From NCBI GenBank assembly GCA_046760505.1, contig JBHIEG010000001.1:52023-116022 (forward strand): DNA of 64,000 bases, given 5' to 3'. The position numbers and the translations under genes were made by a program. Numbering within the stretch: the first letter of the stretch is position 1; every line of letters starts with the position of its first letter. Of this stretch, positions 6,337 to 55,967 are shown one piece after another. Origin of the DNA: CAYFZR01 sp046760505 [NCBI: Candidatus Hydrothermarchaeota archaeon]. GTDB lineage: Archaea; CAYFZR01. Below the pieces are notes generated by a model that was given only the letters and a program-made list of their open reading frames with translations, made no database searches and was not told the origin of the DNA.

Positions 6337-6453
6337 GAAAAGCCCCTAACCTTTTTTAGAAAAATGCCTTATTAATGTTGGGATCGTATCTTTCAATACC
6401 TACCTTATACCAATATTATACAATATTTGTGCTATAAAATGCCCATCTTGACT

Positions 6454-6714
6454 TTATTTTATAATTTTTCCGGTTCTCGGATCGATCCAGAAATAATGAT
6501 ATTTAATTGGTTCTCTTGGCGGTGGTAGGTCGGAATTCCATTTATCAGATTTTGCCTTGAAAACGCGATCTAGGGTGAAAAATTCGTGTTCCCATATTCT
6601 TAACTTACTTCGCTCCTCCTCGCTTAAACAAAAGACCCTTATTTTCTTACCCTTGGGTAACCTTGATAAGTCGATATCGTGTTTATACCCGCACTCAGGG
6701 CATTCTATAATCAT
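6454..6714 (-). CDS. Small zinc-ribbon-like protein of unknown function
   Basis: The protein has 86 residues and opens with a CPECGYKH motif. A single later cysteine lies near residue 29, so at most a partial zinc knuckle is visible. The rest is Trp-, Pro- and charge-rich. The ATG is preceded by a good ribosome-binding site (AAGGTGAT). It heads the minus-strand group 7701-6454 (SagB-like, membrane protein, this one), with a 32-nt gap from the membrane protein. I do not recognise the family. Confidence 0.6.
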   Translation of the reverse strand: MIIECPECGYKHDIDLSRLPKGKKIRVFCLSEEERSKLRIWEHEFFTLDRVFKAKSDKWNSDLPPPREPIKYHYFWIDPRTGKIIK

Positions 6715-6746
6715 GGTATCACCTTCTCTTAGATTTTAAAAACGCT

Positions 6747-7019
6747 TTAGTAAATCAGAGCGTATTTGTGAGTTAAAAACGTCGAAATTATCGTTATCAT
6801 GGTGGTTAGGGCAAAGGATACATGAATCCTTCTGATTATCCTTTCATTTGATATCAGGAGAGAAAAACCTGAAATCGAAAGCACGGAAAATCCAACCAGA
6901 CTAAGATAGGCAAAGAGATGATGCCAGTCTACTGGCCTAGGCTTTTGATAGTAGAGTGCCCAGATGAAGAGAATACTTATTAAATAAGTTAGAACAGTAA
7001 TTGCAAGGGTTTTCTTCAT
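6747..7019 (-). CDS. Small integral membrane protein of unknown function
   Basis: The protein has 90 residues and about three hydrophobic segments, roughly residues 4-22, 33-55 and 67-88. Short charged turns separate them. A strong Shine-Dalgarno (GAGGTGATGAT) directly precedes the ATG. The start lies 4 nt after the SagB-like stop, so the two are probably co-transcribed. No family signature is visible. Confidence 0.6.
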   Translation of the reverse strand: MKKTLAITVLTYLISILFIWALYYQKPRPVDWHHLFAYLSLVGFSVLSISGFSLLISNERIIRRIHVSFALTTMITIISTFLTHKYALIY

Positions 7020-7023
7020 ATCA

Positions 7024-12905: not shown

Positions 12906-12914
12906 TTTATATAT
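12906..12914 (+). promoter_or_regulatory. TATA box of the hsp20-cdc48 operon
   Basis: TTTATATAT lies 53 nt before the chosen hsp20 ATG at 12967, leaving a short leader that contains the Shine-Dalgarno GAGGTGAT (12955-12962). A heat-shock operator is expected here, but I cannot identify one. Confidence 0.5.
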
Positions 12915-12966
12915 GACATCTAACGCAAGATTATTTAGTGGGTCTAACACTCATGAGGTGATGAAA

Positions 12967-15704
<2,738 letters not shown>

Positions 15705-15742
15705 TAAGGGTGTATCCTTCCACCCCAATTTTTCAGAAATTA

Positions 15743-16174
15743 TCAGATCGCTATACCGTGTTCCTCTTTCATTATATTCAAAACCACCATGGTGTACGTT
15801 CTTTTAACGTGCTCCATTGCCAAAACTTTTTTTACGAAATCGTTCAAACTGGAACGATCTTTGAATTTAGCCACGATTATGGCATCGTACTCTCCAGTAA
15901 CGTCATAAACTGCAGAAACATTCGGTTCATCTGCGATCTTTTTTTCTATCTCTAATAAATGTCCACCCTCCACAATAATACCGATTATCGCAGCTAAGTC
16001 ATAACCCAACTTTGAGTAATCTATGTTTGGAATGAATCCTTTTATTATTTTAAGTTCTCGAAGCTTGTTAAATCTATTGTACACCGTTCCCTTGGCAACA
16101 TCCAATTTATTGGCTAACGCCCTGAAGCTCTGGCGTGCATCTTTCTTTAATTCTCTGAGTATGTTTAAATCCAA
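15743..16174 (-). CDS. AsnC/Lrp family transcriptional regulator
   Basis: The 143-residue protein has an N-terminal winged HTH (KDARQSFRALANKLDVAKGTVYNR) and a C-terminal RAM domain with VTGEYDAI. TTG 16174 is the only usable start because no ATG or GTG lies upstream in frame. That start is only 3 nt from the P-II start on the opposite strand, so this gene and P-II share a very compact divergent junction. A role in nitrogen or amino-acid control is inferred from the neighbours P-II, nrpR and glnA. Confidence 0.9.
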   Translation of the reverse strand: MDLNILRELKKDARQSFRALANKLDVAKGTVYNRFNKLRELKIIKGFIPNIDYSKLGYDLAAIIGIIVEGGHLLEIEKKIADEPNVSAVYDVTGEYDAIIVAKFKDRSSLNDFVKKVLAMEHVKRTYTMVVLNIMKEEHGIAI

Positions 16175-16177
16175 GTC

Positions 16178-16504
16178 ATGGGGATTATCAGGGATGAAAA
16201 ATTGGAGGATGTTAAGATAGCGCTTGAGAAAGTCGGAATCATAGGACTAAATGTAACAGAGGTCAAGGGCAGGGGTCGCCAGAAGGGAATTCCACTTCAA
16301 TGGCGAGCCACTACGTACATTGTAGATATGCTTCCGAAAATAAAACTGGACATTGTGGTAAAGGATGAGGACTTGGAAAAAGTTGTTAATACAATCCTAG
16401 AATCGGCATGGACAGGTAACTTTGGCGATGGAATGATTTTCGTTATTCCGGTGGAGGAGGTGATAAGGGTCAGAACCGGAGAGAGGGGAGAGGATGCATT
16501 ATGA
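16178..16504 (+). CDS. glnK: Nitrogen regulatory protein P-II
   Basis: This trimeric sensor of 2-oxoglutarate and adenylates has 108 residues. It shows the KGRGRQKG start of the T-loop, a Tyr in the TTYIVDM context equivalent to Tyr51, the B-loop (TGNFGDGMIFV) and the C-terminal RVRTGERGEDAL. Compared with typical family members, about four residues of the first beta strand are missing: it starts at MGIIRDEKLEDVK. No amtB gene is adjacent, so choosing glnK over glnB is only convention. It sits beside nrpR and glnA. Confidence 0.92.
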   Translation: MGIIRDEKLEDVKIALEKVGIIGLNVTEVKGRGRQKGIPLQWRATTYIVDMLPKIKLDIVVKDEDLEKVVNTILESAWTGNFGDGMIFVIPVEEVIRVRTGERGEDAL

Positions 16505-16755
16505 GTAGTTAGAGGTCCAAGATCAACCGAGTCTTGCCTCTATCTATTTCTCTCGTTTTCTGGATATGCATCACAGAAAAAGTAAGAATTCATCAAGAAT
16601 TTATCCATGGACATGATAGGGAGAAACTAAGATTCTTAAGTTAAATCCAGAAAACACCCCCATCACAAAAGTGTAACAAAAAGCATACAATAGAAATTCC
16701 GTTTAGAGGGATAAGTGCGTGGAAGATGCGGAACATCGTAGGTTACTCTCAGATT

Positions 16756-20609: not shown

Positions 20610-21590
20610 ATGTTTGCTTTCAAAGCGCTTGCAAATATTATAAAAAGCAGGTATTCTCCTGTTCCTTTGGTTATATGTCACAACATAACTTATAAATGTA
20701 ATTTAAGATGCAAATTCTGTCGTTTTTGGAGAATAAAACCTCAACAAAAAGAACTAACCTTTGAAGAAATTCAACGAATCATCGATGAATCCAGGGAATT
20801 AGGCGCAATAATGTATAATGTATGGGGTACAGAGCCTCTTATGAGAGAAGATCTGCTAAATTGTTTAAGCTATGCAAAAGAAAAGGGCTTAAGAACTTGT
20901 CTCATAACAAACGGCATACTCCTCGAAAATAGGGTTAAAGAACTCTCTAAGTTGATAGATTATTTGATCGTATCTGTAGACGGACTGGATGATACATACG
21001 AGAAGATAAGAGGTATTAACTTTAGAACAATACTAAGGGCTCTTGAAAAGGTAAAAGAGTATAAAATTAAAACTACGTTGAACTACGTTATATGCGGTCT
21101 AAATCTAGGAGGAATACGAAAAACCATATCTTTCGCAAACGATATGGGCTTTTACATAAGTTTTGAACCAGTTCATTATTTTCCCGAAATAGAGGAAGAC
21201 TGGGAAGAAATAAAAATAAAGGACCAAGACTCTTATATTAAGGCGATAGAGACAATCATCGAGATGAAGAAGGAAGGATACAAGATTGCAAATTCTTTTA
21301 AGTACTTGTCCCTGTTGAAAGAAAATAGAAGAGACTTCAGATGTAGTGTGGGAAACTTTCTCTTGCATATAGAGCCAGATGGCTCTGTTTACATTCCATG
21401 CGGTAAATGGGGCAAGATTGGCTCTGCAAGAGAGAACTCGCTAAGGAATATATGGTTCTCTAGTGAGGCGAAAAAAAGGAGAAATCATGCCAAAGATTGT
21501 AGAGATTGTCTTTTCTCGGGTTATATTGAGTCTTCCCTCCTATATTCTTTTAATTTAAGTGCACTGAAAAATTTTTTCATGAATATATAG
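20610..21590 (+). CDS. Radical SAM protein with C-terminal SPASM-like cysteines
   Basis: The 326-residue protein has the radical SAM cluster motif CNLRCKFCRFW near residue 31. Conserved GTEPLMREDL and VDGLDDTYEKIRG are typical of the PqqE/HpnH-like branch. C-terminal cysteines (CSVGNF, YIPCGKWG, CRDCLF) suggest an auxiliary cluster. No modification target is evident. It begins immediately after the phosphoesterase stop, so the two are translationally coupled. A role in lipid or peptide modification cannot be decided. Confidence 0.85.
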   Translation: MFAFKALANIIKSRYSPVPLVICHNITYKCNLRCKFCRFWRIKPQQKELTFEEIQRIIDESRELGAIMYNVWGTEPLMREDLLNCLSYAKEKGLRTCLITNGILLENRVKELSKLIDYLIVSVDGLDDTYEKIRGINFRTILRALEKVKEYKIKTTLNYVICGLNLGGIRKTISFANDMGFYISFEPVHYFPEIEEDWEEIKIKDQDSYIKAIETIIEMKKEGYKIANSFKYLSLLKENRRDFRCSVGNFLLHIEPDGSVYIPCGKWGKIGSARENSLRNIWFSSEAKKRRNHAKDCRDCLFSGYIESSLLYSFNLSALKNFFMNI

Positions 21591-31157: not shown

Positions 31158-31236
31158 TGTTCTTATCATCATAATAAAGAGAGTAAATCTAAAAAAATAA
31201 TTGAAAGATAAAAAGATTAACAGATTTCTGAGACCG

Positions 31237-31524
31237 TTACTCCTTCAGGACTTTAATTAGGTCGTCTACAGACATTGCAGGCATGGTTAGTGTTTGTATT
31301 GTCCCTCGGGCACCGAGTTCAACCGCGACCTTGATAGCAGTTTCGTTGTCAGGAGCTTCCAGTATGTTTACAAAGTCATATGGGCCGAAAACGGTGTATT
31401 GACTTAGTATTTTGACTCCCATTGCCTCAACTTCTTTGTTGACCTCTTTTATTCTTTCTGGATTCTTTTTTATGGTCTTTCTGCCCTCGTCCGTAAGCGT
31501 GGTCAGCATAACATATACCGGCAT
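31237..31524 (-). CDS. GYD-domain protein
   Basis: The 95-residue ferredoxin-like-fold protein has the pattern YTVFGPYDFVNILEAPDNETA typical of the GYD family (here PYD replaces GYD). Function in the family is unknown. The gene is monocistronic, with a good Shine-Dalgarno (GGGAGGTGAGG) before the ATG. Confidence 0.85.
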   Translation of the reverse strand: MPVYVMLTTLTDEGRKTIKKNPERIKEVNKEVEAMGVKILSQYTVFGPYDFVNILEAPDNETAIKVAVELGARGTIQTLTMPAMSVDDLIKVLKE

Positions 31525-31762
31525 ATCCTCACCTCCCTCTCGATCAACTTACACGAGCGATGTACACATTAAGCTACCTTATAAATGAGATAAAGTTTGC
31601 GGAGTATGAAGGTTATTTTCACATGAAACATAGCGGATCTCACTGGAATCTTCAACGATCTTCTCTTTATCCAAAAGTAGTAGACAGAAGTATCCAATAT
31701 GTTTTTGGAGATCAAACTCCTTTATATACTACTTATCTATCTCTGAAGTGGTCAGCGACCTT

Positions 31763-32965
31763 TTATTTATCGCCTCTCGATTTTCTTCTAATTTTGTTGA
31801 ATAGATTCGCCTGAAATCCATGAAATTTGAGCATGCCACTTATTTCTCTCTGATCGAATGCCTTTTCATCGAACGATACAGCCTCTTTTTCGTATAGGGC
31901 AAATGGAGATTCTTTTGAAACCACCCTTGCATTGCCTTTATGCAGTTTTATCTTTACCGTACCAGAACACCTTTTCTGAGTAAAGTCTATATATTCGTCC
32001 AGCCCCAACCTCAAAGGATCGTGCCACAGTCCATGGTATATCAACTCTCCATACAAGGAGTCCACATATTCTTTAAATCTGATTTCGTTCCTTGTTAAAA
32101 CCAAACTTTCTAGGCTTTTATGAGAGTTTAAAAGAGTCATAGCTGCGGGAGCTTCATAAATTTCCCTAGACTTTAGACCGAGAATTCTGTCCTCGATTAT
32201 GTCAATTCTTCCCACCCCGTGTGATCCTGCTATTTTATTTAGGTTCATTATCAACTCAAGAGGGGGCATCTTATTGTTATCTAGAGAAACAGGTTCTCCT
32301 TCTTCAAAATCGATTTCAATAACTTCGCCATCTTCAGGTGCATCTTTTACAGAAACCGTCATTTCAAATATATCCTCAGGAGGATCCAAAGAAGGATCTT
32401 CTAAAACTCCACCCTCAATCGATCGGCCCCAGAGATTTTCATCTATGCTGTAGGGTTTCTCATGCGTTACAGGAATTGGAATCCTCTTTTCTTTTGCATA
32501 TTCGATTTCTTCTTTTCTTGACATGTTTAGTTCTCTGATCGGCGCTATAACCTCAAAATCACTAGTTCCCCTTATTAAGGTCTCGAATCTGAATTGATCG
32601 TTGCCTTTGCCGGTACATCCATGGGCTATTGCTTTAGCGTTTAATTCTCTGGCTTTTTCTACCGCTTTTGTGGCGATTAACGGTCTTGCCAAGGCTGTAC
32701 TTAAAGGATAGCCTTCATAGATGGCATTCGCTTTGATAGCCCTAAATATGTAGTCCTCTGCGAATTCATCCTTTGCATCTATGGTGTAATGATCCGAAAC
32801 ACCAATTTTTTCAGCTCTTTCTTCAGCCTCTTTTATATCGTTTGCTGGCTGTCCAACGTCTACTGTAACAGTTACTACATCCATATTGTATTTTTCTTGG
32901 ATCAACCTAATGCAAACCGAGGTATCCAAGCCTCCGCTGTAGGTTAACACGCAGATATCCTTCAT
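31763..32965 (-). CDS. argG: Argininosuccinate synthase
   Basis: It condenses citrulline and aspartate with ATP in arginine synthesis. The ATP pyrophosphatase P-loop is YSGGLDTSV at residues 8-16, and [13 protein letters not shown] is conserved. The start at ATG 32965 gives 400 residues. It overlaps the carB stop (ATGA) and has a Shine-Dalgarno (GGTGGAGG), while ATG 32980 lies within carB without support. carB and argG thus form a coupled arginine operon. Confidence 0.95.
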
Positions 32966-35900
32966 GCCTCCACCTTCCATTTCCCCCTATAATACTCGGA
33001 TAACGACCTTACACAGAGTTTGCCTTTTCTTACCTTCTTTATTGCCTCAACCGCTGCTCTTGCGCCTGCAAGAGTTGTTATGTAGGGTATACTTAGTTCT
33101 ACGCATGCCCTCCTTATCATAAATCCGTCTCGAGAGGGTTCCCTTCCAACGCTTGGGATGTTTATGACGAAATCTATCATATTTGACCTCATGTAATCGA
33201 GTATATTTGGAGTTCCCTCGCTTACCTTCTTCACGATTTCGGCTTTAACTCCATTTTCATTAAGAACTCTTGCTGTACCTCTGGTTGCCAATATTTTAAA
33301 TCCTAGATTGGACAATTCTTTTACTATGGGTACCATATTTAGTTGTTCTTCATCTTTTACGCTGATAAAGATAGTTTTGTTGAAAGAAGTGCTTACAGGT
33401 AGTTCCATAAAGGCGCCTAACTGAGCCTTAAAGAAGGCGTTTCCGAAAGCATAGTCGATTCCCATTACCTCGCCGGTAGACTTCATTTCTGGTCCCAGTA
33501 CGGGATCTACGCCAGAGAGTTTTGCAAACGAAAACACCGCTTCCTTAACTGCTACATGAGTTAGGTCGTGCTCGCTAGTATAACCGAGTTCTTTTAGGCT
33601 GCGTCCAATCATTACCTTTGTTGCCAATTTAGCCAAAGGAATACCGATAGCCTTGCTAACATAGGGAACTGTTCTGCTTGCCCTTGGGTTTGCCTCTAAA
33701 ACATAGACAACTCCATCCTTCACCGCATACTGTATGTTTATCAACCCTACTACTCCAAGTTCTAAGGCTATTCTCTTTGTGTAATCCTTAATTTTTTCAA
33801 CAATATCTTTTCCAAGCGTCTGTGGAGGTATAACGCATGCACTATCTCCAGAATGTACTCCAGCTTGCTCTATATGTTCCATTATGCCTCCAATGAAAAC
33901 GTCTTTTGAATCACAAACCGCATCAACGTCTACTTCTACAGCGTCTTGCAAAAATTTATCTACAAGGACCGGGTGCTCTGGGGAGACTTTTATCGCGTCT
34001 CTCATATATTTCTCAAGTTCGGTTTCATCTTGCACTATCTCCATGGCCCTTCCGCCCAATACGTATGAGGGTCTCACGAGCAAAGGATAGCCAATCTTCC
34101 TTGCAATATTCTTTGCTTCTTCTATTGAATGTGCGGTTCCGTAAGGAGCCTGAGGTATGCCCAACTTGTCTAGCAATTCTGTAAAGCGTTTTCTATCTTC
34201 TGCTCGATCTATGCTTTCAGGAGACGTTCCCAATATTTTAACACCGCATTTTGACAGAGGAACCGCTAGGTTTATGGATGTTTGACCGCCAAACTGAACC
34301 ATAACTCCTTCGGGCTTTTCTAACTCAATTACGTTCAAAACGTCTTCTAGCGTAAGAGGCTCAAAATATAACTTGTCAGATATGTCGAAATCAGTACTAA
34401 CTGTCTCAGGATTGTTGTTTATTATTATGGCCTCTATTCCCTCTTCTCTTAATGCTAAAACGGCATGTACGGTACAATAATCGAACTCTATTCCCTGACC
34501 TATTCTAATTGGTCCTGCACCGATTATGATTACCTTCCTATTTTTGGAGGGATTAACTTCGCATTCGCTCTCATATGAAGAATAGTAATAAGGTGTTTGC
34601 GCTCGAAATTCTGCTGCGCACGTATCCACCATCTTGTAGGTTGGGATAATGTTCAATTCTCTACGTAGATTTCGTATTTTAAACTCATTTGTCTTTAAGA
34701 GATGTGCTAACTGTCTATCAGAGAAACCCAACTTCTTTGCCTCAGTTAAAATCTTCTTATTTATGTTTTTTATCCCCTTCTCTTTGATTATTTTTTCCAT
34801 TCTCACTATGTTTGAGATTTTATGTATAAAGAATGGATCTATATTTGTTAATCTCGAAATTTCTTCTACCTCGAGTCCCTTCATCAATGCCTCCCTGATA
34901 TGAAAGAGAGTTGTATCAGTGGGAGAGGAAAGAATTTTTTTAAGAGATTCTTTATCACCAAAGGACTCCTCTGTTCCGTTTGCTTCCAAGCCAAATTTTC
35001 CGATATCTAGTGATCTAACTGCTTTCTGTAACGCCTCCTCAAAAGTTCTTCCAATCGCCATTACCTCTCCAGTTGACTTCATTTGTGTTTTTAGAGTCCT
35101 ATCTGCGTACGGAAACTTGTCGAAAGGCCATCGGGGTATCTTGATAACAACGTAGTCTAGTGTAGGTTCAAAACTAGCAAGAGTTTCGCCTGTAACCGCA
35201 TTTGGAATCTCATCTAAAGTCATGCCGATTGCAATCTTTGCTGCCACTCTTGCTATTGGATATCCCGTCGCTTTAGATGCTAGAGCACTGCTCCTGCTAA
35301 CCCTAGGATTAACTTCTATTACTCTGTATTCTCCTGTTTCTGGATGGACGGCAAATTGTATGTTGCAGCCTCCCTCCACGCCCAATGTTCTTATAATTCT
35401 CAGTGAGGCGCTTCTTAAGATTTGATGATCCTCATCTGATAAAGTCTGAGCAGGTGCTACCACTATGCTCTCTCCGGTATGGATTCCCATTGGATCTATG
35501 TTCTCCATGTTACATACGGTAATGCAGTTATTCGCTGAGTCGCGCATAACTTCGTACTCAAATTCTTTCCAGCCTAGAACCGCTTCTTCAATAAGAACTT
35601 GATTTATTCTGCTATACTCAATTCCGATTTTCACTATTTCTTCTAGTTCTTTCTGGTTATGGGCTATCCCCCCTCCGGTCCCTCCCAGTGTGTAAGAAGG
35701 GCGTATGATCAGGGGAAATCCGATTTCCTCTGCGATAATTTTGGCGTCTTCTAGATTATTTACGGCTTTACTTTTGGGAACAGGCTCACCAATGCGCTCC
35801 ATCGTCTTCTTGAACAAATCACGATTTTCACATGCTTTTATCGCCTCTATTGGTGTTCCAAGAGTTTCTACTCCGTACTTTTTTAATATTCCTCTCTCTG

Positions 35901-38222: not shown

Positions 38223-38308
38223 ATTCTAGTTCCATCGATACTTCTTCTTAAAAATTCCGTGTGAACATATATATTCCTTCATCCTCTAATAATATAGGAG
38301 GCTCTTCA

Positions 38309-38935
38309 ATGATATGTAAGACATGTGGTACCAGTTTAAAAGAGAAATGGCGATACTGTCCAAACTGTGGAAAAGCCGTGAAAGACGTCGAAGAATTCCT
38401 ATCCCTCGAGGAGTTAATTGATAGGATAAAAAGAGAGATAGGAGATATAACCAAAGATTTTGCAAAGGAGATTCAAATCCTTGATTTTAAGGACCTTACC
38501 GAGTCAATTATAAAGGGCGGAGGCTTCAGTATCAGAATTTCAAAAGAAGGAGATAAATCCCCTGAAATAGACATAAAGACTTTTGGTGATCTCGAGGAAG
38601 AGATAAAAGAGATGATAACAAATATCCTGAACATTGACACGAAAAGTAAAATAGAAATCAGAAACCCAGACAAAAAAAAGTTCAGAACCACACCAGAAAA
38701 GGTAGAAGAGCCTGAGATAACCTTTAATAGTGATGGGGTTTACGATATCGTGACACTTGATTTACCTGATGTGAAAGATATTAGCCAAATCGACATTGAA
38801 AAGTTTGAGGAGTCCATTGAAGTGAGGGCGTTTACCGATAATAAATGTTACATCAAGATAATACGCATTCCTAAAGGTACTTCCATCGTAAAAACAGAAT
38901 TTAGCATGGGAAAACTAAAGTTAACCCTCAAATAG
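38309..38935 (+). CDS. Zinc-ribbon protein with C-terminal alpha-crystallin-like domain
   Basis: The 208-residue protein starts at ATG 38309 behind AGGAGG. The frame from 38261 has no ribosome-binding site. A zinc ribbon CKTCG...CPNCG covers residues 3-24. A charged linker follows. Residues about 135-208 resemble an alpha-crystallin/CS beta sandwich (DIVTLDLPDVKDI, SIEVRAF, GTSIVKTEFSMGKLKLTL). The gene directly precedes a cdc48 copy by 9 nt, just as hsp20 precedes copy 1, implying a substrate-targeting chaperone. This is inference from context. Confidence 0.78.
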   Translation: MICKTCGTSLKEKWRYCPNCGKAVKDVEEFLSLEELIDRIKREIGDITKDFAKEIQILDFKDLTESIIKGGGFSIRISKEGDKSPEIDIKTFGDLEEEIKEMITNILNIDTKSKIEIRNPDKKKFRTTPEKVEEPEITFNSDGVYDIVTLDLPDVKDISQIDIEKFEESIEVRAFTDNKCYIKIIRIPKGTSIVKTEFSMGKLKLTLK

Positions 38936-38944
38936 GTGGGTTGA

Positions 38945-41131
38945 ATGAAGCAGATAGAGTTAAGAGTCGCAGAGTCAATGCCCCAAGATGTTGGTAAAGG
39001 TATAGTTAGGATAGATGGAAAAAGTCTAGCGGAATTAGGACTTGTTGCAGGAGATATCGTCGAGATAAGAGGAGAAAAAATAGGAGTGGCAATAGTAAAC
39101 CAAGGGTATCCTATGGATGAAGGTCTGGGCATTGTGAGGATGGATGGAGTGGTAAGATACAATGCAGGAGCCAACATAGGAGGGAAGGTGAAGGTAAGGA
39201 AAGCACAAGTAAAAAACGCCCGAAGAATAAGGTTAAGCCCCATTCAACCCGTTAGATTTAGATCAGATTTCCAAGAATACGTCAGAAGAAGAATTATAAA
39301 AAAACCGCTGATCAGAGGAAATAGGATAGATGTTCCTGTTTTTAATACCGCTTTATCTCTAATAGTAACGAGTACAGACCCGAGCGGTTCGGTATTAGTA
39401 ACCGAGGAAACCCAGATTAATATCAGCGATCGTCCGATAAAGGACATACTAGATATTCCAGCCGTAACATATGAGGACATAGGTGGGCTGAAAGAGGAAA
39501 TCCAGAAAGTTAGAGAGATGATCGAGCTTCCACTAAGGCACCCTCAGGTATTCGAGAAACTGGGTATCAAACCCCCAAAGGGCGTTCTTCTCCATGGACC
39601 GCCGGGAACCGGAAAAACATTACTTGCAAGAGCAGTAGCCCACGAAAGTAACGCCCATATTATAATGTTAAATGCTCCTGAAATTATGGGAAAATATTAT
39701 GGAGAAAGCGAAGAAAGGCTCAGAGAAATATTCAAACAAGGGCATGAGAATGCTCCAAGTATAATATTCATAGATGAAATAGATGCAATAGCGCCCAAAA
39801 GGGAAGAGGTTACTGGAGAAGTGGAGAAGAGAGTAGTAGCACAATTACTTTCTTTAATGGACGGTTTAAAAGAGAGAGAGAAAGTAATAGTTGTTGCCGC
39901 TACAAATAGGCCAAACGCTCTCGATCCTGCGCTCAGAAGGCCTGGAAGATTTGATAGAGAGATAGAGATAGGTATTCCAGATAGAGATGCAAGATTTGAG
40001 ATACTGCAGATCCATACAAGGAACATGCCTTTAGAAGACGTGGATCTGGAAGAGTTAGCAAATTCAACCCATGGTTTTGTGGGTGCAGACATAGCCGCTT
40101 TATGCAGAGAGGCTGCAATGAGTGCCTTGAGAAAAGTTTTGCCAGAAATAGATCTTGAAGCCCATGAAATCTCACCAGATACATTGGAAAAATTGGTAGT
40201 GCGTAGAGAAGACTTCAAAGCAGCCTTAAAAGACGTTGGCCCCTCTGCACTCAGAGAAGTCTACGTTGAAATTCCGAATGTAAGGTGGTCAGATATTGGG
40301 GGGTTGGAAGAAGTCAAGAAGGAGTTAAAAAAGGCGATAGAATGGCCTCTCAAGTATCCAGATGAGTTTGAAGAACTAGGTATCAAACCGCCTCATGGTA
40401 TATTACTCTACGGTCCTCCAGGAACCGGCAAGACCATGCTTGCAAAGGCTATAGCCACTGAGGCTCAGGCCAACTTCATAAGTATAAAAGGGCCCGAACT
40501 ACTAAGTAAATGGGTTGGAGAAAGTGAAAAGGCAGTTAGAGAGGTATTCAAAAAAGCCAGACAAACTGCCCCCTGTATAATCTTCTTTGACGAGGTAGAC
40601 TCGATAGTTCCTAGAAGAGGGACTGGTATAGGAGATTCAAGAGTTACTGAAAGAATAATAAGCCAGATACTAACGGAGTTAGATGGTATTGAAGAACTAA
40701 CAGATGTAGTGGTAATTGCCGCGACGAATAGACCTGACATAATCGATCCTGCCCTGTTCAGACCAGGAAGATTTGATAAAATAATTTACGTACCAGAACC
40801 TGATCAGAGAGCAAGATTAGAAATATTCAGGGTGCATACAAAGAATATGCCTCTGGGAGATGACGTGGATATTGAGTGGTTAGCAGGCGTTACCGAAGGA
40901 TACACCGGAGCAGACATAGCTGCTCTTTGTCAAGAGGCAGCTATGATAGCGCTTGAAGAAATCATGGGAAAAGACGTTAAAAGGATTGAGATGAGGCACT
41001 TTGATGAGGCACTGAAATCAGTAAAACCATCTTTGTCAAAAGAAGTCATATTTCAATACGAGAAATTTACAAAGGAAAGAGAGAAGAGAGGCACGATATT
41101 GGACGAAGATTTCAGGGTTTCTTACTTGTAA
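38945..41131 (+). CDS. cdc48: AAA+ unfoldase Cdc48/VAT, copy 2
   Basis: The 728-residue protein has an N-domain to about residue 180 and two AAA modules, each with GPPGTGKT and a DEID/DEVD Walker B. It is clearly related to copy 1 but differs throughout, especially the N-domain loops and the C-terminus, which ends Ser-Tyr-Leu. The duplication is therefore old rather than recent. The upstream zinc-ribbon/alpha-crystallin gene is co-transcribed. It probably acts on a different substrate set from copy 1. Confidence 0.95.
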
Positions 41132-42947: not shown

Positions 42948-43358
42948 ATGAAGGAAAGCAAAACAGAGATCAAGGTGAGAATCTCTGATACAGACCTATG
43001 GGGCGTCGTTTATTTTGCAAATTACTTCCGCTATTTTGGCGTTGGTATAGAGGAGTTCTTCATGTCTCTAGGAATTCCTAGGGAAGAGTTGATAAAATTT
43101 TTCGAAGAAAAAAAGGTAGCAATGCCAATAGTAGAGGCTTCCTGCCAATATAAGGCTCCAGCCAGATTTGGAGATACATTGGAGTTGGATACAACGCTTA
43201 AAGGAATTGGTAACAAGAAGATAACCTTCGAATTTAATTTACTTAGAAAATACGATGGTGAACTCATAGCAAAAGGTCGCGTAACTCACGTATTAGTGGA
43301 CGAAAACTGGAAACCCATAGAAATCCCTAAAGAACTGAAGAAATTATTAGAAAATTGA
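42948..43358 (+). CDS. 4HBT hotdog-fold thioesterase, paralogue A
   Basis: The 136-residue YbgC/FadM-like acyl-CoA thioesterase carries the catalytic SDTDLWGVVYFANYFRYF segment with Asp-x-x-x-x-Gly-Val-Val. It has a Shine-Dalgarno (GGGGG) upstream. It is similar to the second copy at 45195-45602, with which it brackets a KaiC-like gene. Confidence 0.88.
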   Translation: MKESKTEIKVRISDTDLWGVVYFANYFRYFGVGIEEFFMSLGIPREELIKFFEEKKVAMPIVEASCQYKAPARFGDTLELDTTLKGIGNKKITFEFNLLRKYDGELIAKGRVTHVLVDENWKPIEIPKELKKLLEN

Positions 43359-43505: not shown

Positions 43506-45125
43506 ATGCGTGAAAAGCCTATACCTGAAGAAATTTTAGATGCGTTTAACAGGTACAGAGGTTATGTATTACTGATAAAGGGAGATCCAGGAACCGGGAA
43601 AACAATATTTTCTCTTGAATTATTAAACGAATTGAGTAAAAATGGCAACGGAATTTACCTCTCTACTAGAGTATCTGGAAAGTATTTATACGATCATTTT
43701 CCATGGCTAAAAGGTGTTTTGTTTGAGGAAAATATATTAGATACGACCAAAGGCTACCTAATCGAGGCAAAAGATCCTAAGAAAGCGGTATTCTACAGTT
43801 CAAAGCCAGATTTTATCAAAACCATATATGAGAGAATACATCATTTAGAAAAACCAGTTACTTTAGTTATAGATAGTTGGGACGTTATATTTAACGATAT
43901 AAAGGAAGCAAAGGATTTGGAAGATAATTTTATAGAGATATCTCGCGATACTGAAACGAATGTAGTTATGATAACGGAAAAGCAAGGTAAGTCTCTTGAT
44001 TATTTAGTAGATGGCATATTAAGATTTGAGAAGAAGAATATAGAAGGGAGAAGAATTAGGTTACTCCACATAGATAAAATGAGAGGAATAAAGATAAGAA
44101 AGCCAAGCTATGTTTTTACTCTGGAGAGTGGTAGAATAAAATGCTTTAAGCCATTCAAGCCATTGGTCTACAGTTTGTGTGGAAAACTATGCTCTGTCTG
44201 CGATCTTTTCATCGATAAAAAATGCAAGGGATGTGTACTAGAAAACGAAAGCAGAGAAGAAAAATGCCCTATATATAAATGCTTGGTGGTTAAAAAAGCC
44301 AAATCTTGCGACAGATGTGCTGAATTAAACTCATGTAGCATATATGAAAAATCCGTGGAGAAATGCATAATATCGGGATACAGTCCTAAGAAATTAATAA
44401 TTAAGGAGTGGGTGTCTACAAAAGATGGCATGACTCATTTTTCATCGGGAAGCGAGGAGTTAGATGCAATTTTAGGGGGAGGATATAGGAGAGGTAGCCT
44501 AGTGCTCATAGACGTTGGAGAAGGAGTTCAAGATCCAGCATATAGACTCTTTAATTATTTGCCTGTAATGAACTTCATTCAGCAGGGAAGAGGCGCAATA
44601 ATATCAACTGTGGGTGGAGCAGACTCTCAAGAAGTAAGGAACAGGATGTGCCGTTTTGTAAGCGAGAAAACATTTGACGAATACGTTAGGGTACTGGAAA
44701 TAAACAATCCTGAAAAAGATCAGGAGAAGCCCTACATCGTTATATTAGAGGACGATACAATAGAGGCTTTCAACGATGCCTGGGTTAAAACTCAGAAGGA
44801 GCTCAGAAAAAAGACAGGCAAGCCGATATATCATCATTTTGGTTTTGACATACTGGAATACAGATACGGAGAGCAATCCCTGATAGAGGAAACCAGCAAG
44901 ATAACAACAATGATAAAGAGCAACGGAGATCTTGGAATCGCAGTAACAAAACCCGGTCTAAAATCCAAACAGGAACTAGCAAACATAGCAAGTGTCCATC
45001 TAAAAATAATGAATATTCATGGTTTCACTGTCTTTTATGGAATACAACCAATTACAGAACTTTATTTAACAAATGTAGATATATCCAAAGGTTATCCTAA
45101 GATAAAACTCTGCCCAATTGTTTAG
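43506..45125 (+). CDS. KaiC-like ATPase with central cysteine-cluster domain and second degenerate KaiC domain
   Basis: The protein has 539 residues. The N-terminal KaiC/RecA domain has Walker A GDPGTGKT (residues 26-33) and Walker B VTLVIDSWDV (about 118). Residues 225-287 hold about eleven cysteines (CGKLCSVC, CKGC, CPIYKC, CDRC, CSIY), resembling the DUF3795 metal-binding pattern. A second KaiC-like domain (about 310-539, GSEELDAILGGGYRRG) has lost the GKT of its P-loop (VGEGVQD). Such fusions suggest a nucleotide-driven switch with a metal or redox module. It lies between two thioesterases. Confidence 0.8.
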   Translation: MREKPIPEEILDAFNRYRGYVLLIKGDPGTGKTIFSLELLNELSKNGNGIYLSTRVSGKYLYDHFPWLKGVLFEENILDTTKGYLIEAKDPKKAVFYSSKPDFIKTIYERIHHLEKPVTLVIDSWDVIFNDIKEAKDLEDNFIEISRDTETNVVMITEKQGKSLDYLVDGILRFEKKNIEGRRIRLLHIDKMRGIKIRKPSYVFTLESGRIKCFKPFKPLVYSLCGKLCSVCDLFIDKKCKGCVLENESREEKCPIYKCLVVKKAKSCDRCAELNSCSIYEKSVEKCIISGYSPKKLIIKEWVSTKDGMTHFSSGSEELDAILGGGYRRGSLVLIDVGEGVQDPAYRLFNYLPVMNFIQQGRGAIISTVGGADSQEVRNRMCRFVSEKTFDEYVRVLEINNPEKDQEKPYIVILEDDTIEAFNDAWVKTQKELRKKTGKPIYHHFGFDILEYRYGEQSLIEETSKITTMIKSNGDLGIAVTKPGLKSKQELANIASVHLKIMNIHGFTVFYGIQPITELYLTNVDISKGYPKIKLCPIV

Positions 45126-45194: not shown

Positions 45195-45602
45195 ATGAAA
45201 GTTCATAAAACTGAGATCAGGGTTAGATTTGGAGACACAGATCCCTTTGGAGTTGTTTATTATGTAAGCTACTTTAGATACATCAAAGACGCCCTTGATG
45301 AGTACATCAGGTCCAGCGGTTTTGAGCCAGAGAAATTTTATAGGGATGTTAAGAGGAAGATAGGTTTTCCCATCGTAGAGGCATTTTGCCAATACAGGGC
45401 TCCAGCCAGATATGATGATCTATTGGAAATACATACGAGCATAAAGGAAATAAAAGAAAAATCCATAAAATTCAACTTCGACGTCTATAAAAAAGAAGAA
45501 AAAAAGTTTTTGGCAAACGGATATCTCACGATCCTAGCAATTGATGAAAATTGGAGACCTATAAAGATTCCGGATGATATACGAAATTTACTGACTAAAT
45601 GA
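45195..45602 (+). CDS. 4HBT hotdog-fold thioesterase, paralogue B
   Basis: The protein is 135 residues from ATG 45195. TTG 45183 is an alternative start. The motif GDTDPFGVVYYVSYFRYIKD is the same catalytic segment as in paralogue A, and FCQYRAPARY and ENWRPIKIP are also shared. It lies about 70 nt after the KaiC-like gene. Substrate unknown; probably an acyl-CoA. Confidence 0.88.
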   Translation: MKVHKTEIRVRFGDTDPFGVVYYVSYFRYIKDALDEYIRSSGFEPEKFYRDVKRKIGFPIVEAFCQYRAPARYDDLLEIHTSIKEIKEKSIKFNFDVYKKEEKKFLANGYLTILAIDENWRPIKIPDDIRNLLTK

Positions 45603-52493: not shown

Positions 52494-53486
52494 ATGCACG
52501 CTATCGTTGTTGAGGAAATAACAAAAGAATTTAATGGCTTGGTGGCCGTAAACAAGGTTAATTTGAAGGTTAAAAGGGGAGAGTTGCTCGGCTTACTGGG
52601 TCCAAATGGTGCTGGAAAAACCACGCTGATTCACATGTTATGTACTCTCATCCCCCCTACCCACGGTAGAGGAGAAGTATGGGGCTATGACATAGTAGAA
52701 GAGCCAGACGAAGTCAGAAAATCCATAGGTATAGTCTTTCAGGATCCTACTCTGGACGAGAAATTAACTGCAAGAGAGAACCTTGACTTCCACGGAAGGA
52801 TGTATGGAATGCAAAAGGCTGTGAGGGAGAAGAGGCTTAGAGAAGTTTTAGAACTTGTAGAACTTACCGATAGAGAAAATTCTTTGGTTGAGACTTTTTC
52901 AGGAGGAATGATGCGAAGATTAGAAATAGCAAGGGGATTGATGCACAAACCAAAGGTTCTATTTTTAGATGAACCCACTCTGGGTTTAGATCCTCAGACT
53001 AGAAGACATATCTGGAATTACATCAAAGAGTTAAACAAAAGGGAAGATATAACCATAGTTTTGACAACTCATTATATGGAAGAAGCCGACTTTTTATGCG
53101 ACAGGGTAGCAATAATTGATCAGGGAAAAATAATATCTCTAGACTCTCCAGAATCTCTTAAAAAGAATCTAGGCGGAGATATAATTTACCTCAAGGTTTC
53201 AAACGCCCAGAAGATGGCTGAGATATTTTCAAGATTAGATTTTGTACAGGGTGTAAAGATTGTGGATGAAACTATACAGCTAAAAGTTAGTGACGGGGAG
53301 AAGACTATACCCAAGGTACTAGATATCGCTAGGGAGAACGGTACCACTGTTGAGGCAGTAAGTGCAACCAGACCCACATTGGAAGATGTTTTCATCCAAT
53401 ATACCGGTAGAAGAATAAGAGAGCAGGAAGTCTCTTCTAGGGAGAAAACAAGAGCAATGATAAGAGCAATAAGGAGAAGAAGGTAA
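52494..53486 (+). CDS. ABC transporter ATP-binding subunit (DrrA-like)
   Basis: The 330-residue protein has Walker A GPNGAGKTT near residue 35, the Q-loop FQDPT, the signature FSGGMMRR and Walker B VLFLDEPTLGLDP. An extra C-terminal domain of about 90 residues follows, as in DrrA-type exporters, ending in an Arg-rich tail. It pairs with the ABC-2 permease 30 nt downstream. Substrate unknown. Confidence 0.93.
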   Translation: MHAIVVEEITKEFNGLVAVNKVNLKVKRGELLGLLGPNGAGKTTLIHMLCTLIPPTHGRGEVWGYDIVEEPDEVRKSIGIVFQDPTLDEKLTARENLDFHGRMYGMQKAVREKRLREVLELVELTDRENSLVETFSGGMMRRLEIARGLMHKPKVLFLDEPTLGLDPQTRRHIWNYIKELNKREDITIVLTTHYMEEADFLCDRVAIIDQGKIISLDSPESLKKNLGGDIIYLKVSNAQKMAEIFSRLDFVQGVKIVDETIQLKVSDGEKTIPKVLDIARENGTTVEAVSATRPTLEDVFIQYTGRRIREQEVSSREKTRAMIRAIRRRR

Positions 53487-53516
53487 AATATAGGATTAAG
53501 AGGGGAAAAGCAGTTG

Positions 53517-54263
53517 ATGGCAATTTACACTCTATGGCTAAGAGAAATGAAGAGATTCATAAGATTCAGGAGCAGAGTAGTTTCTTCTCTGGCAACCCCT
53601 ATCTTCTGGCTTCTATTATTTGGTGTGGGACTTACCACCGCATTCAGGTTTCCGGGTCTTGGGAGGCTCTCGTACTTAGAGTTCATGGCTCCTGGAATCG
53701 TTGGCATGACCCTACTCTTTGCCTCCACGTTTGCTGGAGTCTCTGTTCTTTGGGACAGACAGTTTGGTTTCTTAAAAGAAATAATGGTAGCACCGGTTTC
53801 TAGAACGCATATTGTGCTGGGAAAGACGATTGGGGGGGCAACGACTTCTCTCATTCAGGGAGGTATAATGCTCATAGTAACTTTGCTCGTTGGCATAAAA
53901 TTCTCTCTTTCCGGATTTTTCATAGCCTTTCTCTTCATGATCTTGATTTCGATAGGCTACGTTGCCTTTGGACTCATATTCGCTGCCAAAATGGAGGATC
54001 CCCACGGCTTTCAGATGATAATGAGCTTTCTCATCATGCCAATGTTTTTCCTTTCCGGTGCTCTTTTCCCACTCGATAGGGTTCCTCACTGGCTAAGATC
54101 ATTGTCCTGCATAAATCCTCTAACATACGGAGTAGACGGGATGAGGGGGGCTTTAATTGGAAATTCTGTCTTCCCCCTGTGGACCGACTTCATCATCTTA
54201 GTGACTTTTTGCCTGATAACAATATCCTTGGCAAGCTACTTCTTTGAGAAAACAACGGTATAA
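53517..54263 (+). CDS. ABC-2 type permease (DrrB-like)
   Basis: The 248-residue protein starts at ATG 53517 (TTG 53514 adds one residue). About six transmembrane segments and the ABC-2 signature region (SFLIMPMFFLSGALFPLDRVP) are visible. Together with the upstream ATPase it forms an exporter. The stop codon is adjacent to the structured RNA candidate. Confidence 0.92.
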   Translation: MAIYTLWLREMKRFIRFRSRVVSSLATPIFWLLLFGVGLTTAFRFPGLGRLSYLEFMAPGIVGMTLLFASTFAGVSVLWDRQFGFLKEIMVAPVSRTHIVLGKTIGGATTSLIQGGIMLIVTLLVGIKFSLSGFFIAFLFMILISIGYVAFGLIFAAKMEDPHGFQMIMSFLIMPMFFLSGALFPLDRVPHWLRSLSCINPLTYGVDGMRGALIGNSVFPLWTDFIILVTFCLITISLASYFFEKTTV

Positions 54264-54360
54264 GAGAAACCCTAAAGACGTTTTACGCCCTTGGTGAGCA
54301 CGAGGAGGTAAAAACTCGGAACCCACAAAAAGGCATGCGCACGTCTTTAGGGTATTTCTC
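54264..54360 (+). ncRNA. Candidate structured RNA (long nested hairpin)
   Basis: An 18-bp closing stem joins GAGAAA-CCCTAAAGACGT (54264-54281) with ACGTCTTTAGGG-TATTTCTC (54341-54360), with a TA bulge. The inner 59 nt fold further: CGC/GCG (54286-88 with 54337-39), CCTT/AAGG (54289-92 with 54330-33), GGT/ACC (54293-95 with 54321-23) and CGAG/CTCG (54301-04 with 54315-18), with a 10-nt loop. It is much more GC-rich than its flanks, as archaeal stable RNAs in AT-rich genomes are. It could be an sRNA, a 3'-end processing element of the ABC operon, or a small mobile element. Strand is undetermined by the stem itself. Confidence 0.5.
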
Positions 54361-54600
54361 GCTAATCATTCAGCACGTTTTAGTTTTTATTTGTAATCTA
54401 ATTTTTCTGGAACTCAATTATATATGTTTTATTCCTTTAGTTGTACACTTTCGTCCATGGCATACATTTTGTTTTTAATATACAATTTCTATCGAAAGTA
54501 TCCTCTCATACAACTTTTTATTATATTTATTCCACTGGCATTAATACTTAAGAATATGTTACTGATGATGTATGTGTAAAGATAATAAGACGGTGATTCA
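54361..54600. other. AT-rich leader upstream of hdrC
   Basis: About 240 bases with T-rich runs at 54376-54392 and 54470-54480 and a TATA-like AATACTTAAGAATAT near 54543-54557, 45-58 nt before the hdrC ATG. I see no ORF, tRNA or strong hairpin. A GGTGATTCA just before the ATG is a weak ribosome-binding site. Confidence 0.4.
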
Positions 54601-55107
54601 ATGCCAAGTAGATCATATCCAAGCTTTGCGGACGAAGTAATAGAGGCAGGAGGAGAAACCCTTAACCTTTGCTATCAGTGCGGAACCTGTACAGGAACTT
54701 GTCCTTCCGGGAGATTAACTGCATTTAGGGTCAGAAACATTATCAAAAAGGCTCAATTTGGATTTAAAGATGATATTTTACCTAATGATGATCTCTGGAT
54801 GTGCGTTACTTGCTACATGTGCTACGAAAGATGTCCAAGAAGGGTAGACATCCCCGGCATAATCCTGATCTTAAGGAACATGTCTGTTTCTGCCGGTTTC
54901 ATGGCGGACAATCATAAAAAAGCTGCTGAAAACCTTATAAAAACAGGTCATAGCGTTCTTCTGACCGATAAATATAAAGAAATGAGAAAAGCACTCGGAT
55001 TACCTGAAGAACCACCTACTACACTAACAGATCAAGAGGCACTCAAAGAAATCAAAGTTATTGTTGGACGAACAGGGTTTGAAAATCTTTTGAGGAGGAA
55101 AAAATGA
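54601..55107 (+). CDS. hdrC: Heterodisulfide reductase subunit C
   Basis: The 168-residue protein has two [4Fe-4S] motifs, CYQCGTCTGTCP near residue 21 and CVTCYMCYERCP near 67, with no membrane helix. It passes electrons between HdrA and the HdrB active site. The hdrB gene follows with a 4-nt overlap. hdrA is not adjacent. Confidence 0.92.
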   Translation: MPSRSYPSFADEVIEAGGETLNLCYQCGTCTGTCPSGRLTAFRVRNIIKKAQFGFKDDILPNDDLWMCVTCYMCYERCPRRVDIPGIILILRNMSVSAGFMADNHKKAAENLIKTGHSVLLTDKYKEMRKALGLPEEPPTTLTDQEALKEIKVIVGRTGFENLLRRKK

Positions 55108-55967
55108 CTTACGCTCTTTTTCTCGGATGTATCGCTCCACTGAGGTATCCTGGAATAGAGAGTTCTACGAGGGAGATCTTGGATAGGCTGGGTATAAAAT
55201 ACACAGATCTAAGAGGTGCTTCCTGTTGTCCAGCACCAGGAGTTTTCAGATCTTTCGATCAGAGGACGTGGCTCTCTGTGGGGGCAAGAAACCTTGTCTT
55301 GGCTGAGAAAAATAATTCAGATGTGTTGGTGATTTGTAACGGATGCTATGCCTCTTTAAAAGAAGTTGCACACGAACTGAATAAGGAGAAGAACTTGACA
55401 GAGATAAATGACGTTCTGAACGAAATCGGTATGAAATACAGCGGTTCTGCAAAGGTTAAACATATTGTAGAAGTCCTATACGAAGAAGTCGGGACAGGAA
55501 GAATAAAAGAAAAGGTTGTTAATGAATTAGAATTGGATATAGCGGTTCATTATGGATGTCACCTCTTAAGACCCAGCGAGATAATGGTGAGCGATGATCC
55601 TGAGAAACCCCATATACTGGATGAACTAGTTGAGGCAACCGGAGCCAAAAGCCTTTCATACACGGATAGGATGCTTTGTTGCGGCTCTGGAGGCGGAGTT
55701 CGTGCGAGGTCTCCAGATGTAGCGCTGAGAATGACTAAAATAAAACTTGACATATTCAAAGAAGCGGGTGCTCAAGCAATAGTTACCCCATGTCCTTTTT
55801 GCCATCTCCAATACGACTCAGGACAAAAAGAGTTGAGGAAAAAAGGAAACGGTTACAATATTCCTGTTCTCCACGTATCACAACTACTTGCATTATCCTT
55901 TGGGGTCGATAGGGATAAACTTGGATTGAAGTTTCATTCAACGCCTGTGAATCTGGAGTTTGATTGA
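55104..55967 (+). CDS. hdrB: Heterodisulfide reductase subunit B
   Basis: The 287-residue protein carries two cysteine-rich CCG domains: GASCCPAPG (about residue 39) and CCGSGGGVR (about 192), with CHLLRP and CPFCHLQYD. These bind the non-cubane [4Fe-4S] clusters that reduce CoM-S-S-CoB in methanogens, or other disulfides in related archaea. Without mcr genes in the window, methanogenesis cannot be claimed. Confidence 0.93.
   Translation: MTYALFLGCIAPLRYPGIESSTREILDRLGIKYTDLRGASCCPAPGVFRSFDQRTWLSVGARNLVLAEKNNSDVLVICNGCYASLKEVAHELNKEKNLTEINDVLNEIGMKYSGSAKVKHIVEVLYEEVGTGRIKEKVVNELELDIAVHYGCHLLRPSEIMVSDDPEKPHILDELVEATGAKSLSYTDRMLCCGSGGGVRARSPDVALRMTKIKLDIFKEAGAQAIVTPCPFCHLQYDSGQKELRKKGNGYNIPVLHVSQLLALSFGVDRDKLGLKFHSTPVNLEFD

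What the first reader, a model, noticed from the sequence alone, without database searches (positions are those of the whole stretch)
54264..54360. Long nested hairpin suggests an undescribed structured RNA
Seen: an 18-bp closing stem (12 bp perfect, CCCTAAAGACGT with ACGTCTTTAGGG) and four inner helices enclosing a 10-nt loop, in GC-rich sequence inside AT-rich flanks directly after the ABC permease stop. Known: stable archaeal RNAs in AT-rich genomes often stand out by GC. Inference: it is an sRNA, an mRNA 3' element or a MITE-like repeat. It matches none of the riboswitch or box C/D motifs I know, and a GA-containing 5/2 internal loop only vaguely recalls a K-turn.
Basis: partly seen in the sequence, partly recalled or inferred. 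Interest (0 to 1): 0.62.

Follow-up and report, generated by a model that had tools for sequence, protein, structure and literature searches.

The report
Lone palindromic hairpin behind transporter genes
A 97-letter stretch just after a transporter gene of an unnamed archaeon can fold into one long hairpin; the hairpin is real, but it looks more like a small palindromic repeat element in the tail of the gene's message than a new kind of RNA.

Summary
The hairpin at 54264-54360 is real: an 18-bp closing stem (13 bp perfect), nested helices and a 10-nt loop, directly behind the stop codon of an ABC-2 permease gene. The minus strand folds better (-51.3 kcal/mol, z -6.3) and is the most stable fold among 110-nt windows (step 10) of the 64 kb. 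The excess over chance is moderate: 0 of 8 shuffled windows reach it (best -45.3 against -47.3). No Rfam family matches. A one-sequence structure model finds no credible relative in 813 archaeal genomes, so covariation could not be tested. No second copy lies in the window; its own genome is not held. Behind the closest permease match in the nearest phylum sits a different nested hairpin that is a dispersed palindromic repeat (42 places in 511 kb). Best reading: a low-copy MITE/REP-like palindrome in the 3' tail of the ABC operon mRNA, ahead of T-tracts that resemble an archaeal terminator. Against it: one copy in 64 kb, no flush target duplication, hairpins here not conserved. A minus-strand small RNA with an anti-Shine-Dalgarno loop, best predicted partner the neighbouring HdrB-like gene, stays possible but weakly supported. 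Interest low.

The parts
54264..54360 (.). imperfect palindrome / nested hairpin; folds better as minus-strand RNA
54264..54281 (.). left arm of the closing stem
54341..54360 (.). right arm of the closing stem, with a 2-nt bulge at 54354-54355
54305..54314 (-). 10-nt apical loop, UUUUUACCUC on the minus strand; AGGAGGT (54303-54309) on the plus strand is a Shine-Dalgarno-like word, ACCTCCT on the minus strand its complement
54378..54406 (+). three T tracts (54378-54381, 54384-54388, 54402-54406), a possible archaeal terminator of the ABC operon
   Evidence: sequence; function inferred
52494..53486 (+). ABC transporter ATPase gene (DrrA-like C-terminal domain)
53514..54263 (+). ABC-2 type permease gene; its stop codon touches the hairpin
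54601..55107 (+). 4Fe-4S dicluster protein gene (HdrC-like; that name is recalled)
55104..55967 (+). cysteine-rich CCG-domain protein gene (HdrB-like; that name is recalled); its upstream GAGGAGG at 55092-55098 is the best predicted partner of the minus-strand loop

Best explanation
A small MITE/REP-like palindromic element lies directly behind the stop codon of the ABC permease gene and is now part of the 3' untranslated tail of the ABC operon mRNA, ahead of U-tracts where archaeal termination would occur. As RNA it forms one long rod. Its likely effect is passive: a stable 3'-proximal hairpin that slows 3'-to-5' decay of the transporter message. Shown: the palindrome, its place and predicted stability, the T-tracts, and a dispersed palindromic repeat behind the closest permease match in the nearest phylum. 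Inferred: the mobile origin, the transcription, the termination site and the effect on decay.
For: Whole-length inverted repeat of 97 nt directly behind a stop codon. In genome G428, the closest permease match of the nearest phylum (59%), a nested hairpin with a perfect 15-bp closing stem also follows the permease (z -7.03); it is a dispersed repeat: 15 places by blastn at E <= 1e-3 (itself included), 42 by iterated nhmmer in 80 contigs (511 kb), none in reversed contigs. Of the 42, 22 lie mostly outside ORFs against 4.3 expected at random (maximum 14 in 300 trials), and 17 lie within 50 nt of a gene 3' end against 3.1 (maximum 10). No homologue of the window hairpin in 813 genomes and no match of the G428 family in the other held loci or the window fit genome-specific repeat families. 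Three T tracts follow the hairpin; U4 tracts mark archaeal terminators (PMC8716108, passages).
Against: One copy in 64 kb, whereas the G428 family has about one place per 12 kb. No flush target-site duplication; only TAA at an offset of 2 nt. MITEs are said to be typically AT-rich (PMC10969869, passages), this is GC-richer than its surroundings. The G428 repeat shares no sequence with it. G428 is closest by permease, but by the protein at 31763-32980 G427 is; in G427 the next ORF starts at the permease stop, so no hairpin fits there. Among outside-ORF copies of the G428 family the gene-end preference is not significant (8 of 22; 10 of 100 random sets reach it). Strong folds follow only 5 of 114 other permease ends at z < -3, 3 of 114 at z < -4, about the background of gene ends (30 of 489 at z < -4).
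Confidence: 0.38

Rival explanations
1. A selected 3' element of the ABC operon mRNA (3'-end protection or help in termination) that was not mobile in origin.
For: Directly behind the stop codon, followed by three T tracts; with the one inside the hairpin, four T4 tracts in the first 150 nt, the highest of 15 gene ends compared (others 0-3).
Against: The plus strand folds clearly worse than the minus strand and its energy is within the range of shuffled windows. Hairpins behind this permease are not conserved. Archaeal terminators do not need a hairpin (PMC8716108, passages).
Confidence: 0.2
2. A minus-strand small RNA whose loop (UUUUUACCUC) pairs with ribosome-binding sites, foremost that of the HdrB-like gene at 55104 in the neighbouring operon, and blocks its translation.
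For: The minus strand folds best; all 4 non-Watson-Crick pairs are G-U on the minus strand and mismatches on the plus strand, a 1 in 16 chance for a named strand. The loop contains the complement of AGGAGGT. Of 51 start regions the best partner is the HdrB-like one (-15.5; 1 of 300 shuffles that keep the ACCTCC core does as well). M. mazei sRNA154 and sRNA41 are described as masking ribosome-binding sites (PMC5867862, passages).
Against: Over all 51 start regions the loop pairs no better than shuffled loops (90 of 300 reach the mean). The 10 loop bases alone give only -6.2, so apical pairs must open. The target was picked after the fact among 51. No homologue. A TATA-like site at 54432 on the minus strand is at chance level (126 of 500 shuffles reach its score), and no clear promoter motif could be derived.
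Confidence: 0.15
3. A chance palindrome without function, noticed because it is the strongest of the window.
For: Perfect 13-bp arms occur in 18 of 100 whole-window shuffles; shuffled windows reach -45.3; 30 of 489 gene ends carry a fold with z < -4; no conservation seen.
Against: 0 of 8 shuffled windows reach -47.3; 36 pairs with only small internal loops; it begins exactly behind a stop codon.
Confidence: 0.22

Closest known systems
MITEs and REP/ERIC-like intergenic palindromes (review PMC10969869, passages read)
   Same: Short, no ORF of 60 aa within it, terminal inverted repeats, between genes, transcript would fold into a stable stem-loop
   Different: Only one copy known here, no flush target duplication, GC-richer than its surroundings; copy number in its own genome untested
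Dispersed palindromic repeat of genome G428 (found here: L114 688-845)
   Same: Nested hairpin with a long closing stem directly behind a related ABC permease gene
   Different: No sequence similarity; longer (about 158 nt); multi-copy
Archaeal U-tract (aCPSF1) terminators (PMC8716108, passages read)
   Same: T tracts of 4-5 behind the gene end
   Different: Those terminators do not need a hairpin; here a long hairpin precedes the tracts
Methanosarcina mazei sRNA154 and sRNA41 (PMC5867862, passages read)
   Same: A loop complementary to ribosome-binding sites; a possible target inside a polycistronic mRNA
   Different: No homologue found, no evidence of transcription; no Rfam match

Membership tests
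MITE | terminal inverted repeats | tested here: met
   18-bp arms, 13 bp perfect
MITE | target-site duplication flush with the ends | tested here: not met
   none flush; best is TAA with a 2-nt offset. Duplications wane with time (PMC10969869, passage), so the loss is not decisive
MITE | many copies in the genome | tested here: inconclusive
   one copy in 64 kb; own genome not held
MITE | a related autonomous transposon in the genome | not tested
   own genome not held; only 5 window proteins were scanned with Pfam, none a transposase
Rfam families | score above the gathering cut-off | tested here: not met
   0 of 4227 families over the whole window; weak sub-threshold hits only
conserved structured RNA | homologues with compensatory changes | tested here: inconclusive
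   no homologue found, so covariation could not be counted; no close relative is held
hairpin-dependent intrinsic terminator | U-run directly after the stem | tested here: not met
   no terminator-like site called there; the first T4 tract begins 18 nt beyond the stem
archaeal U-tract terminator | U4 tracts upstream of the transcript end | tested here: inconclusive
   three T tracts at 54378-54406; the transcript end is unknown
anti-RBS small RNA (sRNA154-like) | own transcript | not testable with these tools
   no RNA data; promoter scans uninformative
anti-RBS small RNA (sRNA154-like) | loop complementary to ribosome-binding sites | tested here: inconclusive
   strong for one gene (-15.5), not better than shuffled loops over 51 start regions

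The most novel reading that the evidence does not exclude
A minus-strand small RNA of a deep-branching archaeal lineage that shows an anti-Shine-Dalgarno loop and silences the HdrB-like subunit of the neighbouring operon, perhaps domesticated from a palindromic repeat.
Probability: 0.08. Interest if true: 0.5.

Novelty: new member of a known kind. Interest (0 to 1): 0.18.

Why it matters
If it is a palindromic repeat element, it is one more case of small hairpin elements settling between genes in a little-studied archaeal lineage, where they would shape mRNA tails. It also shows that a striking hairpin without relatives should be checked against the repeat families of the nearest genomes before it is called a new RNA. 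If it were an anti-Shine-Dalgarno small RNA, it would carry ribosome-site masking by small RNAs well beyond Methanosarcina.

Tried and rejected
Rfam at gathering and at permissive thresholds: nothing credible. tRNA genes: none in the window. Copies elsewhere in the window: short partial matches only, best E 0.70. Two window repeats near 43125 and 45369 looked like elements but seem to lie in paralogous reading frames (the frames were judged by eye, and a Pfam scan that would have named them failed). The hairpin DNA was not found in 6 genomes. The one-sequence model R1 gave three weak hits in 3 of 23 genomes of the nearest phylum (18.2, 16.6 and 13.6 bits). I read the ORFs around the first two and both lie inside long ORFs, so I took them as chance; the third (L113) I saw only as an alignment. 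The first hit covers just the apical 31 nt and keeps the loop and pairs of that part, so it is a tempting but coding match. Plasmid and phage searches: no match. Viral contig patterns: no match. A motif search on 26 upstream regions gave no recognisable archaeal promoter motif and was dropped; a recalled consensus scored at chance level. Rfam on 8 permease loci: nothing. K-turn: no formal test; by eye the minus-strand internal loops show no tandem G-A pairs. Names such as HdrC/HdrB, Cdc48, Hsp20, Nop5, argininosuccinate synthase and thioesterase are recalled, not from a call.

Full report
Observation. The sequence at 54264-54360 is an imperfect palindrome with arms 54264-54281 and 54341-54360: 18 bp with a 2-nt bulge, 13 bp of it perfect. 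It begins directly behind the stop codon of an ABC-2 permease gene (53514-54263), which follows an ABC ATPase gene with a DrrA-like C-terminal domain. As RNA the 126 nt at 54250-54375 fold at -39.4 kcal/mol on the plus strand (z -4.17, 0 of 200 shuffles) and at -51.3 on the minus strand (z -6.27, 0 of 200). The minus-strand fold of 54259-54365 has 36 pairs, 4 of them G-U; the plus-strand fold has 33, none G-U. The four G-U pairs become mismatches when the plus strand is laid on the same structure.

Chance. Among 110-nt windows at step 10 on both strands the minus-strand hairpin is the lowest (-47.3; best unrelated one -44.1 at 21361, plus strand). In 8 versions of the window shuffled in 500-nt blocks (step 20) the lowest values ranged from -38.7 to -45.3 (a larger run, hit the time limit). 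From these eight values I estimate a 1-2% chance per window. A perfect 13-bp inverted repeat within 120 nt occurs in 18 of 100 shuffles.

The organism. No genome is held for the window. The protein at 31763-32980 (argininosuccinate synthase, name recalled) matches 17 of the 23 genomes of the phylum of G409 at E <= 1e-145, with 57-62% identity and up to 554 bits, against at most 496 bits in 392 genomes drawn from the phylum of G002. G409 holds locus L046, isolate SZUA-158, which PMC6946796 calls a Hydrothermarchaeota MAG (passages read). The window is thus from a divergent archaeon, perhaps near Hydrothermarchaeota. This rests on one protein, and other archaeal phyla could not be reached.

Relatives of the hairpin. 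No Rfam family reaches its cut-off in the window, and the sub-threshold hits are weak. A covariance model built from the one sequence finds the hairpin itself (133.7 bits; its other strand 24.8) and nothing else at E <= 5 in the window and 98 loci. It finds nothing at E <= 0.05 in 392 genomes of the phylum of G002 and 398 of the phylum of G405, both with stricter filters. In the 23 genomes of the phylum of G409, 3 of 23 gave weak hits; the two I examined lie inside long ORFs. The 11 and 58 genomes were empty too; their handles had appeared, and I do not add them to the 813. Plasmids, phages and viral contigs gave no match. Without a close relative an empty answer is weak evidence, and covariation could not be tested.

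Same place in other genomes. I took the best permease match in each of the 138 loci then held; 114 had a stop codon and at least 110 nt beyond it, whatever lies there. Of these 114, 5 had z < -3 and 3 had z < -4 on at least one strand in the 110 nt behind the stop; some loci overlap, so the rows are not all independent. Background: 30 of 489 gene ends with at least 110 nt to the next ORF had z < -4 on at least one strand, from 12 shuffles each on 160 nt (this set includes the window, the loci and 20 contigs of G428). Strong hairpins behind this permease are therefore not a conserved trait.

The closest permease match of the nearest phylum. One of the three is L114, in genome G428 (59% identity). 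There a nested hairpin with a perfect 15-bp closing stem (688-702 with 831-845) follows the permease (z -7.03 for 580-853). In 80 contigs (511 kb) of G428 this sequence is dispersed: 15 places by blastn at E <= 1e-3 including itself, 42 by iterated nhmmer, none in reversed contigs. 22 of 42 lie mostly outside ORFs of at least 100 aa, against 4.3 at random (maximum 14 in 300 trials); 17 of 42 start within 50 nt of a gene 3' end, against 3.1 (maximum 10). Among the 22 outside ORFs, 8 are near a gene 3' end, which 10 of 100 random outside-ORF sets reach, so a special liking for gene ends is not shown. The family does not match the window or loci L001-L138 other than L114 itself, and the window hairpin has no match in these contigs better than 17 nt at E 0.44. 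In G427, the genome closest by the protein at 31763-32980, the ORF behind the permease starts at its stop codon, so there is no room for a hairpin.

Reading. A MITE/REP-like palindrome behind the ABC operon explains the whole-length inverted repeat, the place, the lack of homologues and the parallel in G428. Against it stand the single copy in 64 kb (the G428 family has about one place per 12 kb), the lack of a flush target duplication and the GC content. If the operon is transcribed through it to the T tracts at 54378-54406, it forms a stable tail of the mRNA; archaeal termination at U4 tracts, without need of a hairpin, is described in PMC8716108 (passages). With the tract inside the hairpin this gene end has four T4 tracts in 150 nt, the highest of 15 gene ends (others 0-3). 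The function is inferred.

Small-RNA reading. The minus-strand loop region contains ACCTCCT. Among 51 start regions its best partner is the ribosome-binding site of the HdrB-like gene at 55104 (-15.5; 1 of 300 core-preserving shuffles does as well). Over all 51 it is no better than shuffled loops (90 of 300 reach its mean), and 6 of 51 reach -10 against a shuffled mean of 6.5. The 10 loop bases alone give -6.2. M. mazei sRNA154 and sRNA41 are described as masking ribosome-binding sites (PMC5867862, passages). Transcription from the minus strand is unproven; a TATA-like site at 54432 has a score that 126 of 500 shuffles reach.

Literature. I searched for SZUA-158, archaeal small RNA with Shine-Dalgarno and hairpin loop, aCPSF1 terminators, archaeal MITEs, sRNA41, and Hydrothermarchaeota with small RNA. 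Only the passages were read. In the last search 2 papers were listed, neither about small RNAs of this lineage by title or start of abstract.

Noticed in passing
L114 688-845; L139-L218 (80 contigs of genome G428): A dispersed family of GC-rich palindromic repeat modules (42 places in 511 kb by iterated nhmmer), enriched outside ORFs, absent from the window and from loci L001-L138 other than L114.
   Followed up: partly
window 21331-21480: Second strongest fold of the window (-44.1 for 110 nt, plus strand), inside the reading frame 20610-21590.
   Followed up: no
window 12913-15704 and 38261-41131: Two gene pairs that look like Hsp20-like plus Cdc48-like genes (names recalled); the long genes share 71% over 1382 nt.
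   Followed up: no
window 15705-16755, 6337-7023, 31158-31762: Long stretches without an ORF of 150 aa (1051, 687 and 605 nt) and without Rfam or tRNA hits.
   Followed up: no
L028 2036-2235; L075 10189-10389; L001 6039-6239: Other strong folds directly behind gene ends in other genomes (lowest z -5.9 to -10.2 from 12 shuffles; folds); L028 lies behind a related permease of a Desantisbacteria MAG.
   Followed up: no
window 43125-43206 and 45369-45449: 77% identical 82-nt stretches, apparently in two paralogous small reading frames (thioesterase-like by recall) on either side of the gene 43506-45125.
   Followed up: partly
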